41,552 bases of DNA from Chthoniobacter flavus. Lineage in GTDB: Bacteria; Verrucomicrobiota; Verrucomicrobiia; Chthoniobacterales; JACTMZ01. The position numbers and the translations under genes are program-made. This document shows, one piece after another, positions 24,060 to 31,023 of the stretch (the stretch's first letter is position 1; the number at the start of each line of letters is the position of its first letter). The DNA lies in assembly GCA_945871065.1 (NCBI GenBank), contig CAMBUL010000016.1:1-41552 (forward strand), in the 5' to 3' direction. The notes under the pieces are model-generated. The model searched no databases and was not told the origin of the DNA. It saw nothing but the letters and a program-made list of their open reading frames with translations.

Positions 24060-24093
24060 TTGACAGACGCCCCTTTGTGACACATTGTGCACA
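24060..24093 (+). promoter_or_regulatory. Putative promoter/operator of the Phd-PIN operon
   Basis: TTGACA (24060-24065), a 17-base spacer, then cattgt (24083-24088) as a weak -10. The perfect palindrome TGTGCACA (24086-24093) touches the ATG at 24095 and is a candidate operator for autoregulation. The start of transcription would fall at or next to the ATG, giving a leaderless mRNA. Confidence 0.4.
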
Positions 24094-24094
24094 T

Positions 24095-24331
24095 ATGACG
24101 ACGATCACGATCCGTGATTTGCACATGAAGACAGGGCAGTGGGTGCGCGCCGCGGCGCGAGGGAAACGCGGTCTGCTCGTTCTCGATCGCGGGCGACCGG
24201 CGGCACGCTTGGTGCCAGCCGAAGACAAGGCAGGCGTTGATTTCTCGGAGCGTAAACTCGTGCGTGGATTCGACCGCCTGCCGGAATTGTCCGTCGATTC
24301 GGCGCGCCTGCTCGAGGAGGACAGGCGCTGA
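24095..24331 (+). CDS. Phd/YefM-family antitoxin
   Basis: A 78-aa type II antitoxin: N-terminal DNA-binding part with TITIRDLHMKTGQWVRAAAR and LLVLDRGRPAARLVPAE (the Phd pattern of a repeated strand-helix followed by xxGxPxAxLVP), and a disordered acidic/basic tail that would wrap the toxin. It neutralises the PIN RNase encoded immediately downstream and probably represses its own promoter. Its stop TGA overlaps the inferred CTG start of the toxin. ATG 24095 is the natural start; six upstream in-frame codons lie in the promoter. Confidence 0.82.
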   Translation: MTTITIRDLHMKTGQWVRAAARGKRGLLVLDRGRPAARLVPAEDKAGVDFSERKLVRGFDRLPELSVDSARLLEEDRR

Positions 24332-29259: not shown

Positions 29260-29285
29260 GGCGCGTCGGGGACGCCGCGCCCTAC
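29260..29285. repeat. Dispersed repeat copy at the end of the zeta-type gene
   Basis: Reverse-orientation copy of the core (GTAGGGCGCGG then CGTCCCCGACGCGCC). Its CTA (29282-29284) is the TAG stop of the minus-strand kinase gene. Confidence 0.75.
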
Positions 29286-29923
29286 TTTGCGGTGTGCAGG
29301 TGGATGGCGGCGGCGATGATGGGCTGGGCCCAGTCGGGGGCGTTGGAGAGGTTGGCGGGGGCGGTGATTTGGCCGCGTTGCATTTCGAGGAGCAGAACGG
29401 GCTGGGGCTGCCGGCCTGCGGCGGGGTCGGCTTCCGATGAATTGTCATAGACGCGCAGATGGTCGATGCAGGGGAGCAGGCGGATGAGGTTTTCGCGGCT
29501 GCGGTTCCAGCGTTCGCGGATTTTTTCGACCGGAATATCGTGGCCGCCGTGCGCGACACGGCTGCGGACGCGGCGGATATGGAGGTCGGCGCTGGCCAGC
29601 CCGCAAAACCAGACCTGCAGGCGGTGGCCGGAGCGGGCGGCTTTCTCGAGGAGTTGCGCGATGGTGCGTCCGCCGAGAGTGGTCTCGAAGCGGTAGTCTT
29701 GGCCTCCGGCGATGGCTTGCTCGAGGAGCGACTTGCCGATCTGCCAGGCGTGGGCGTTGGCCAGGGTGAGCGAGATGTCGGGGTGAAGGTCGCGGATTTG
29801 TTGGGCGATGGTGTCGGGATTGAAAAAGATATCGCCCTCTTTTTGCAAAAACCCTCCAGCCACGCTGCTTTTGCCCGCCCCGTTGACGCCGGCCAAGACG
29901 GCGATGGTGGGAGGTTTGTTCAT
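29282..29923 (-). CDS. Zeta-toxin-like P-loop kinase
   Basis: A 213-aa AAA_33/zeta-toxin-type kinase: Walker A GVNGAGKSS (12-20), NPDTIA (35-40), FETTLGG (79-85), RRVRSRVAHGGHDIP with the Arg residues that contact phosphate, and a closing helix ERWNRSRENL. Classical zeta toxins phosphorylate UDP-N-acetylglucosamine and block murein synthesis; this branch may have another target. The ATG overlaps the upstream Phd-like antitoxin stop (ATGA), marking a toxin-antitoxin operon. The stop codon is supplied by the repeat. Confidence 0.82.
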   Translation of the reverse strand: MNKPPTIAVLAGVNGAGKSSVAGGFLQKEGDIFFNPDTIAQQIRDLHPDISLTLANAHAWQIGKSLLEQAIAGGQDYRFETTLGGRTIAQLLEKAARSGHRLQVWFCGLASADLHIRRVRSRVAHGGHDIPVEKIRERWNRSRENLIRLLPCIDHLRVYDNSSEADPAAGRQPQPVLLLEMQRGQITAPANLSNAPDWAQPIIAAAIHLHTAK

Positions 29924-30288
29924 GACTTGCTTTTGGCTTTTTGTTGCGCGGCCCATAGAGCGGCTTGACCAAGTTCTTCGGGTGTGGCCCGGAAAAGTTT
30001 TTCTGCTCCCGCCCGTTGCTCCGGCCCCTGCATACGCTCGAGCATGCCGCGGTATTCTTCGTGCAGTTTTTCCAGCCATTCGGGCCGTTGTCCGGCGAGG
30101 GCTTCGTATTGCTCGACGGAGAGGAGAATGGCGCGGGGTTTTTCGTGACGGGTGATGGCGATCGCCTGCTTGGCGGCAACCTGCTCGAAGACGTCGGCCG
30201 TGGAGTTTTTCAGCTCTGTGGCAGTGATGGTGGGGAGTTCTTGGACGCGGGGAACCGTGGTGGTGGGAGGCTGGTAGGCGGTGCTCAT
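29920..30288 (-). CDS. Phd/YefM-family antitoxin partnered with a zeta-type kinase
   Basis: A 122-aa protein: Phd-type N-terminus with TITATELKNSTADVFEQVAA and ITRHEKPRAILLSVEQYEAL, then an additional helical C-terminus of about 55 residues (EYRGMLERM, FRATPEELGQAAL) that could bind the kinase. Classical zeta toxins are paired with epsilon, not Phd. It is coupled to the toxin by a 4-nt overlap. Upstream lies an AT-rich promoter with three 9-bp repeats. Confidence 0.82.
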   Translation of the reverse strand: MSTAYQPPTTTVPRVQELPTITATELKNSTADVFEQVAAKQAIAITRHEKPRAILLSVEQYEALAGQRPEWLEKLHEEYRGMLERMQGPEQRAGAEKLFRATPEELGQAALWAAQQKAKSKS

Positions 30289-30293
30289 CGGGA

Positions 30294-30332
30294 CAAAATA
30301 GCTAATATAGCTAAAATAGCAAGATTCTTGCT
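30294..30332 (-). promoter_or_regulatory. Promoter/operator of the Phd-zeta operon with three 9-bp iterons
   Basis: Three tandem 9-mers on the plus strand, caaaatagc / taatatagc / taaaatagc (30294-30320), then the palindrome AGCAAGA-T-TCTTGCT (30318-30332). On the minus strand TTGCTA and TATTTT are spaced 16 bases apart and could be -35 and -10. The -10 ends 6 bases before the ATG, so the mRNA may be leaderless. The region is much more AT-rich than its surroundings and is a likely binding site for the antitoxin. Confidence 0.6.
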
Positions 30333-30359
30333 CGGCGCGTCGGGGACGCCCGCCCTACC
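30333..30359. repeat. Dispersed repeat copy at the end of rsmI
   Basis: Reverse-orientation copy: GGTAGGGCGGG then CGTCCCCGACGCGCCG. Its CTA (30355-30357) is the TAG stop of rsmI. Confidence 0.75.
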
Positions 30360-31023
30360 TTTGTTGGCCGGCGATGAGCAGGCAGATCTCGCCGCGGGGC
30401 GGCTGTTTTTCCGCGCGGGCGGAGAGCTCGGCGGCGCTGCCGCGCCAGTATTCCTCGAACTTTTTGCTCAGCTCGCGGGCCACGCAGACGGGGCGTTCCG
30501 GGTCGAGTGCGGCCAGCACGGCGAGGGATCTAGCGATGCGGTGGGGGGATTCGAAGAAGATGCTCGTCTCGGCGCGGGCCAAGGCGGCCTCGAGTGCGGC
30601 TTTGCGCCGGCCGGATTTGACCGGGAGAAAACCGCCAAAATAGAATTCGTGCAGCGGCAACCCGGAACCGACCAGCGCGGGAAGGATCGAAGAAGGACCA
30701 GGAAGCACGGTGAACTCCAGTCCCCGTTCGAGGCAAGCGCGCACCATGCGGTAGCCGGGATCCGAGATGCCCGGCATGCCGGCGTCGGTAAGCAGGGCGA
30801 TGTTTTCGCCGGCAGCAAGGCGCTGCGCGATTTCCCCGGAACGTTGTGCTTCGTTGTGTTCGTGCAGGCTGAGCAGCGGACGGCTGATGCCGTGGTGCTT
30901 GAGGAGAATGCTGGCGTGGCGCGTATCCTCGGCGGCAATAAGGTCCGCTTCGCGGAGGAGGCGCAGGGCGCGCAGGGTGATGTCCTCCAGATTCCCGACC
31001 GGGCTGGGAACGAGGGTGAGCAA
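30355..31023 (-). CDS. rsmI: 16S rRNA (cytidine(1402)-2'-O)-methyltransferase
   Basis: SAM-dependent ribose methylase for 16S rRNA C1402. 222 aa, shorter than E. coli RsmI (286) because the C-terminal extension is absent, as in many relatives. Seen: LVPSPVGNLEDITLRALR, AEDTRHASILLKH, LLSLHEHNE, LLTDAGMPGISDPGYRMV, FYFGGFLP and FFESPHRI. The start is TTG 31023 with gaaggg 7 bases before it, right after the LptE-like stop. The stop comes from the repeat. Confidence 0.95.
   Translation of the reverse strand: MLTLVPSPVGNLEDITLRALRLLREADLIAAEDTRHASILLKHHGISRPLLSLHEHNEAQRSGEIAQRLAAGENIALLTDAGMPGISDPGYRMVRACLERGLEFTVLPGPSSILPALVGSGLPLHEFYFGGFLPVKSGRRKAALEAALARAETSIFFESPHRIARSLAVLAALDPERPVCVARELSKKFEEYWRGSAAELSARAEKQPPRGEICLLIAGQQR

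What the first reader, a model, noticed from the sequence alone, without database searches (positions are those of the whole stretch)
29282..30332. Phd-type antitoxin paired with a zeta-type kinase, with 9-bp iterons upstream
Zeta toxins are classically paired with epsilon. Here a Phd/YefM-like protein with an extra helical C-terminus overlaps a zeta-like kinase by 4 nt. The upstream region holds three tandem 9-mers and an adjacent 15-base palindrome, an unusual operator layout for a Phd protein.
Basis: partly seen in the sequence, partly recalled or inferred. Interest (0 to 1): 0.55.

Follow-up and report, generated by a model that had tools for sequence, protein, structure and literature searches.

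The report
Phd antitoxin with zeta-type kinase toxin
A two-gene bacterial toxin-antitoxin module joins a Phd-type antitoxin to a zeta-type kinase; the pairing is fixed in every close relative examined across eight phyla, its operator is a row of 9-base repeats, and its toxic activity is still untested.

Summary
The antitoxin (29920-30288, minus) passes Pfam Phd/YefM and the kinase (29282-29923, minus) passes Pfam Zeta_toxin; they share a 4-nt ATGA overlap. AlphaFold models agree: a Phd DNA-binding domain plus three C-terminal helices, and a zeta/PezT/AvrRxo1-like P-loop kinase. All 80 genome-collection loci with a close kinase relative (49% identity or more, eight named phyla) carry the same antitoxin type directly upstream; none of 26 fetched loci with a more distant zeta-like kinase (39% or less) does. 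On the kinase tree the Phd-paired members are one side of a single branch (99% support). The three 9-mers belong to a family-wide operator of 3-5 tandem 9-bp units (GCYAWWWTR), far above shuffles and transferable in held-out tests. The 15-base palindrome is in only 2 of 92 upstream regions. The promoter seems to lie inside the iterons and the antitoxin mRNA may be leaderless. UDP-GlcNAc as substrate is doubtful: the GTxR motif appears absent. Best reading: an autoregulated type II toxin-antitoxin family, Phd-zeta, a new variant of a known kind. Ten paper searches showed no described Phd-zeta pair. Toxicity, neutralisation, DNA binding and substrate are untested.

The parts
29920..30288 (-). 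Antitoxin, 122 aa: Phd domain (about residues 18-68) plus three-helix C-terminal part (70-121)
   Evidence: PF02604 45.5 bits; AF2 pLDDT 82.9; Phd fold, 2odk Z 8.1, rmsd 1.0 over 51 residues; directly upstream of the kinase in 80 of 80 close relatives
29282..29923 (-). Zeta-type P-loop kinase, 213 aa (presumed toxin)
   Evidence: PF06414 46.9 bits; AF2 pLDDT 92.8; Foldseek best 1gvn zeta E 2.5e-8; Lys18, Asp37, Glu80, Arg118, Arg122, His128, Arg138 invariant in 86 aligned kinases
29920..29923 (-). ATGA overlap of antitoxin stop and kinase start
   Evidence: Sequence
30312..30320 (-). Iteron 1, GCTATTTTA
   Evidence: Sequence; family unit GCYAWWWTR
30303..30311 (-). Iteron 2, GCTATATTA
   Evidence: Sequence; family unit
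30294..30302 (-). Iteron 3, GCTATTTTG
   Evidence: Sequence; family unit
30317..30322 (-). Putative -35, TTGCTA
   Evidence: Inference; TTGACA stands in the last 60 nt before the start codon in 9 of 92 family regions; below the scanner's threshold in the window
30295..30300 (-). Putative -10, TATTTT, inside iteron 3 and 6 nt before the start codon (leaderless transcript suspected)
   Evidence: Inference; the same hexamer 5-8 nt before the start codon in 8 of 92 regions; not reported by the scanner
30318..30332 (.). 15-base palindrome, probably incidental
   Evidence: Present in the window and L005 only, 2 of 92 regions

Best explanation
This is an autoregulated type II toxin-antitoxin module of a distinct, widespread Phd-zeta family. 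The antitoxin's N-terminal Phd domain dimerises and binds the tandem 9-bp iterons that fill the space between -35 and -10, so it represses its own operon by covering the promoter. Its three C-terminal helices bind and block the zeta-type kinase. When the antitoxin is lost, the kinase uses ATP (P-loop Lys18, catalytic Asp37) to phosphorylate a small metabolite and stops growth. The substrate is unknown and probably not held as UDP-GlcNAc is held in zeta. Shown here: domain identities, predicted folds, fixed pairing, parallel inheritance, the 9-bp operator. Inferred: toxicity, neutralisation, DNA binding, repression, substrate class, leaderless transcription.
For: Pfam domains above cut-off. Antitoxin first, 4-nt overlap. 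Same pair in 80 of 80 loci of eight named phyla and on Variovorax and Acidiphilium plasmids; absent in 26 of 26 fetched distant zeta-like loci. One clade, SH-aLRT 99. Antitoxin and kinase distances correlate, Mantel r 0.83, 0 of 2000 permutations as high. Zeta, AvrRxo1 and PezT are the best solved matches of the kinase; Phd fold in the antitoxin. 9-bp operator: z 22.9, 11.9 with one locus per 70% cluster, held-out 50 of 64 and 27 of 28, 0 of 25 other Phd genes. Zeta-like kinases with another antitoxin type arrest growth and are rescued (PMC6362051 abstract).
Against: No experiment on this family. The kinase fold is shared with polynucleotide and other P-loop kinases almost equally well (Z 13.4-13.7). 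The promoter was not found by the consensus scan, which instead reports a weak site on the opposite strand at 30290-30317. The antitoxin model has low pTM (0.49), and the fold of its C-terminal half was barely tested.
Confidence: 0.8

Rival explanations
1. A member of the classical epsilon/zeta-PezAT family that poisons UDP-N-acetylglucosamine, with the DNA-binding domain of a PezA-like antitoxin simply exchanged for a Phd domain.
For: Kinase fold closest to zeta, AvrRxo1 and PezT; P-loop, Asp37 and Arg conserved; a DNA-binding domain followed by C-terminal helices resembles the described PezA layout.
Against: The GTxR motif described as needed for UNAG seems absent: Gly in 76 of 76 at the expected Arg. 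Polynucleotide kinases match the fold almost as well. No Pfam match of the antitoxin other than PF02604 at E up to 1.
Confidence: 0.2
2. A paired small-molecule or nucleic-acid kinase with its own regulator, not a toxin-antitoxin module.
For: Fold matches to polynucleotide kinases, Z 13.4-13.7; no toxicity data for this family.
Against: Patchy distribution (6 of 11 genomes in the family group; 11 of 387 in the phylum sample), plasmid copies, antitoxin-first overlapping layout, and relatives with shown toxicity and rescue.
Confidence: 0.1
3. The 9-bp repeats serve another DNA-binding protein or are only an AT-rich promoter feature; the antitoxin binds the palindrome or nothing.
For: No binding data. 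YefM is described as reading two TGTACA palindromes 12 bp apart, not 9-bp direct repeats (PMC4803016 passage). One other Phd gene (L156) has a partial array when 30 nt of its coding DNA are counted.
Against: The repeats travel with this gene pair across phyla and score low before 25 other Phd genes of the same genus. The palindrome is in 2 of 92 regions.
Confidence: 0.12

Closest known systems
epsilon/zeta and PezAT (1gvn, 3q8x, 2p5t)
   Same: P-loop kinase fold (Foldseek E 2.5e-8 to 1gvn; VIA Z 13.8), antitoxin gene beside toxin gene, P-loop Lys and catalytic Asp
   Different: Antitoxin is Phd/YefM rather than epsilon or HTH-PezA; shorter kinase; GTxR motif apparently absent
ParD_like-zeta pairs: Rv0366c-Rv0367c (PMC6362051) and Mycobacterium sp. 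MHSD3 (PMC5728571)
   Same: Short zeta-like kinase of about 200 aa, antitoxin upstream, GTxR also reported missing in Rv0366c
   Different: Antitoxin there is ParD_like PF11903, here PF02604. The one ParD_like-zeta locus fetched here, L039, falls outside the Phd-paired clade
AvrRxo1-Arc1
   Same: Zeta-like kinase with toxin-antitoxin behaviour in E. coli (PMC4938570 passages); VIA Z 13.8
   Different: Larger secreted effector; partner is a small protein of 3-4 predicted helices, not Phd
Phd-Doc and YefM-YoeB
   Same: Phd DNA-binding domain
   Different: Unrelated toxins; YefM operator is a pair of TGTACA palindromes 12 bp apart (passage) rather than 9-bp direct repeats; longer helical C-terminus here
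omega repressor of omega-epsilon-zeta
   Same: Array of short repeats bound by a small dimer, regulating a zeta operon (passage)
   Different: 7-bp heptads and a ribbon-helix-helix protein separate from the antitoxin; here 9-bp units and a Phd antitoxin

Membership tests
Phd/YefM antitoxin family (PF02604) | Phd/YefM domain | tested here: met
   45.5 bits against cut-off 29.8; 84 of 84 aligned relatives match at E up to 0.01; Phd fold at residues 18-68
Phd/YefM antitoxin family (PF02604) | Binds its own operator | not testable with these tools
   Only the operator DNA was examined
Zeta_toxin family (PF06414) | Zeta-type P-loop kinase domain with Walker Lys and catalytic Asp | tested here: met
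   46.9 bits against cut-off 22.3; Lys18 and Asp37 invariant in 86; zeta and PezT among the best fold matches
epsilon/zeta-PezAT system | Epsilon- or PezA-type antitoxin | tested here: not met
   The only Pfam match of the antitoxin at E up to 1 is PhdYeFM_antitox
epsilon/zeta-PezAT system | UNAG-binding GTxR motif | tested here: inconclusive
   Gly in 76 of 76 at the expected Arg, but the register to zeta was set by hand from the description
epsilon/zeta-PezAT system | UDP-GlcNAc kinase activity | not testable with these tools
   Needs an assay
ParD_like-zeta pair (Rv0366c-Rv0367c type) | ParD_like antitoxin (PF11903) | tested here: not met
   No PF11903 match in the window antitoxin at E up to 1, nor among the families matched by the 84 relatives at E up to 0.01
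Type II toxin-antitoxin module | Two adjacent genes, antitoxin first, kept together | tested here: met
   4-nt overlap; 80 of 80 close relatives; Mantel r 0.83 over 76 pairs
Type II toxin-antitoxin module | Toxin arrests growth and the antitoxin protein neutralises it by binding | not testable with these tools

The most novel reading that the evidence does not exclude
A pan-phylum toxin-antitoxin family in which a Phd protein builds a cooperative side-by-side array on tandem 9-bp iterons (a mode so far described for omega-type repressors) and neutralises, through a three-helix tail, a zeta-type kinase that phosphorylates something other than UDP-GlcNAc.
Probability: 0.45. Interest if true: 0.62.

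Novelty: new variant of a known kind. Interest (0 to 1): 0.5.

Why it matters
Zeta toxins are described with epsilon, HTH (PezA-type) and ParD-like antitoxins. Here a separate clade of zeta kinases has a fixed Phd partner in eight named phyla, so one exchange of antitoxin type seems to have stayed stable for a long time. The shared 9-bp operator gives a clear, testable picture of how a Phd protein might read tandem direct repeats. The conserved but non-canonical active site makes the substrate question (UDP-GlcNAc, NAD or another metabolite) directly testable. On plasmid records several members are labelled only 'hypothetical protein' and 'AAA family ATPase' or 'zeta toxin family protein'.

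Tried and rejected
Rejected: the palindrome at 30318-30332 as a shared operator (2 of 92 regions). Rejected: chance or base composition as the source of the 9-mers. Coding periodicity considered: control DNA 310-420 nt upstream of the start shows raised matches at multiples of 3, lag 9 included (0.301), whereas the operator DNA has no lag-3 excess (0.258) and peaks around 9, 18 and 27. A phage origin has little support: 12 viral-contig loci match at 27-35% identity (their neighbours were not examined) and 4 phage records at 25-31%. PADLOC gave nothing better than E 0.04 for the kinase and nothing for the antitoxin. Sequence searches of solved structures gave no zeta hit better than E 0.17; Pfam and the fold search place the kinase. 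In the structural comparison the antitoxin's C-terminal half was barely covered, so no claim is made about its fold beyond the helices.

Results that cut the other way: L156, another Phd gene, scores 10.4 for the array when 30 nt of its coding DNA are included, above the 99th percentile of shuffles (7.6), but no other Phd gene passes in upstream DNA alone; some of those 25 ORF starts look mis-called, and their lag-9 value (0.287) is about that of lag 6 (0.286). In the held-out test 14 of 64 and 1 of 28 loci do not reach the 99th percentile; in 32 of 92 loci lag 9 is not the unique best self-match.

Limits of the counts: the antitoxin HMM was built from 20 relatives found by similarity to the window protein. 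79 of 80 rest on it with my distance limit; the 80th, L051, was cut by that limit and read. L110 and L122 give partial antitoxin matches. Of the 26 unpaired loci L010 and L012 show the same place, and L032 has only 142 nt upstream; more distant matches were not fetched. For operator counts 5 duplicates and 3 truncated loci (L071, L110, L122) were dropped from 100, leaving 92. A2 holds 84 of 95 unique antitoxins; A3 holds 76 Phd-paired and 10 other kinases; the tree holds 77 and 20, was a quick search, and has long branches. and the held-out tests use plain shuffles, dinucleotide shuffles.

Literature: 10 searches ran; none showed a described Phd-zeta pair. Only openly licensed texts are searched and supplements were not open to me, so database tables may list such pairs. 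I saw abstracts, passages or single sections, never a whole paper.

Full report
Observation. ORFs, overlap and repeats are as described. The antitoxin is 29920-30288 on the minus strand, 122 aa; the kinase 29282-29923, 213 aa; the shared ATGA is at 29920-29923. Pfam gives PhdYeFM_antitox at 45.5 bits (cut-off 29.8) and Zeta_toxin at 46.9 bits (cut-off 22.3); NCBIfam gives the Phd family at 31.7 bits against 20.8 and no match of the kinase above a cut-off. The 9-mers on the minus strand are GCTATTTTA (30312-30320), GCTATATTA (30303-30311) and GCTATTTTG (30294-30302); the 15-base inverted repeat is at 30318-30332.

Structure. The kinase model has mean pLDDT 92.8 and pTM 0.89. Its best solved matches are zeta (1gvn, E 2.5e-8), AvrRxo1 and PezT. 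VIA-align gives Z 13.8 to AvrRxo1 (rmsd 3.5, 190 aligned) and to zeta 1gvn (rmsd 3.5, 177 aligned), with polynucleotide kinases tied at 13.4-13.7, so the fold alone does not name the substrate. The antitoxin model (pLDDT 82.9, pTM 0.49) has helices 70-85, 89-100 and 103-121 after the Phd part. The Phd part, residues 18-68, matches the Phd-family protein 2odk at Z 8.1, rmsd 1.0.

Pairing. In the family group 6 of 11 genomes, own included, have a match of 67% identity or more; G004 shows only a 23-residue end at a contig edge beside asd. In the phylum sample 11 of 387, own included, have a match at 50% or more over most of the kinase. The scan of species genomes kept 80 loci at 49% identity or more; by record title Pseudomonadota 23, Verrucomicrobiota 17, Acidobacteriota 14, Actinomycetota 12, Nitrospirota 7, Rokuibacteriota 2, Myxococcota 2, Gemmatimonadota 1, unresolved 2. 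Many are metagenome bins, so titles may err. An HMM of 20 antitoxins finds the partner beside 79 of 80, and L051 has it too. The pair also sits on Variovorax plasmids, in one case near a replication initiation gene, and on an Acidiphilium plasmid. By contrast 26 of 26 fetched loci with a zeta-like kinase at 39% identity or less have no such antitoxin; L039 has a ParD_like one, and several others have short ORFs of 58-84 aa without a Pfam match above cut-off. All 84 aligned antitoxins match PF02604 and all 86 aligned kinases match PF06414 at E up to 0.01.

Evolution. On a tree of 97 kinases the 77 Phd-paired ones are one side of a single branch, SH-aLRT 99. Antitoxin and kinase distances correlate over 76 pairs, Mantel r 0.83, 0 of 2000 permutations as high. 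In the genus, asd and rsmI flank the module in G000, G003 and G008, and G007 has the two halves on two contigs. L003, L006 and L013 show neither neighbour in the stretch held, so the module has moved.

Operator. Upstream DNA of 92 loci shows a self-match at lag 9 of 0.349 against 0.255 in dinucleotide shuffles (z 22.9), with echoes at 18 (z 10.6) and 27 (z 5.4). With one locus per 70% kinase cluster (35 loci) z is 11.9, and for the 64 loci not assigned to Verrucomicrobiota 16.3 (plain shuffles). An unsupervised fit gives the unit GCYAWWWTR in mostly 3-5 tandem copies. Trained on 28 loci of the window's phylum, it puts 50 of 64 others above the 99th percentile of shuffles; the reverse gives 27 of 28. 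Of 25 other Phd genes of the genus none passes in upstream DNA. The palindrome occurs in 2 of 92 regions.

Promoter. In the window the iterons lie between TTGCTA (30317-30322) and TATTTT (30295-30300), 16 nt apart, and the start codon follows 6 nt after the second. TTGACA stands within 60 nt of the start in 9 of 92 regions, and TATTTT 5-8 nt before it in 8 of 92, the window included. This suggests occlusion of the promoter and a leaderless mRNA in this lineage. It is inference: the scanner's threshold was not reached on this strand, and a weak site on the other strand was reported at 30290-30317. In other phyla the array often lies 20-40 nt or more before the start.

Active site. Lys18, Asp37, Glu80, Arg118, Arg122, His128, Arg138 and Asn161 are invariant in 86 kinases. 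PMC6362051 (section 6) names for Rv0366c the P-loop, Asp36, Glu75, Arg116 and His122, and reports that the GTxR motif needed for UNAG is not conserved there. In 76 of 76 Phd-paired kinases the stretch after Glu80 reads (T/S)TLG, Gly where Arg is expected. The register is mine, so this lowers the UDP-GlcNAc reading without excluding it.

What is known. Zeta-like kinases with ParD-like antitoxins were shown to act as toxin-antitoxin pairs: Rv0366c-Rv0367c, with bacteriostasis and rescue (abstract; passages), and the MHSD3 pair, functional in E. coli (abstract; one section). TASmania passages name ParD_like.Zeta and HTH_3.Zeta combinations. Passages of PMC4803016 give the YefM operator as two TGTACA palindromes 12 bp apart, and omega as reading 7-bp heptads. 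Ten searches showed no described Phd-zeta pair, and one for a 9-bp Phd operator found no paper.

Verdict. A type II toxin-antitoxin module of a distinct Phd-zeta family: a new variant of a known kind. Pairing, predicted folds and operator are well supported by sequence; function is inferred.

Noticed in passing
window 29260-29289 and 30334-30363: A GC-rich repeat (GGCGCGTCGGGGACGC..) lies at both ends of the module, 80% alike over 30 nt without gaps. A 22-base form has 12 matches in the genome at up to 3 mismatches, against 0 for the reversed control. It could be a dispersed hairpin element.
   Followed up: partly
window 24077-24331 (+): A second, weak Phd-like ORF (84 aa; Pfam match 28.2 bits, just below the 29.8 cut-off) overlaps the 5' extension of the 849-aa minus-strand ORF; possibly an orphan antitoxin.
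   Followed up: no
own genome G000: 19 Phd-family matches at E up to 0.001 in a 2.5-Mb genome, 23 and 20 in two genomes of the same genus.
   Followed up: no
L027, L046, L047, L048, L159, L161: More distant zeta-like kinases are preceded by short ORFs of 58-84 aa with no Pfam match above cut-off; these may be other, unnamed antitoxin types.
   Followed up: no
L106 and L111 (Candidatus Synoicihabitans palmerolidicus): Two copies with identical antitoxins lie on two contigs of one symbiont assembly: a recent duplication or an assembly repeat.
   Followed up: no
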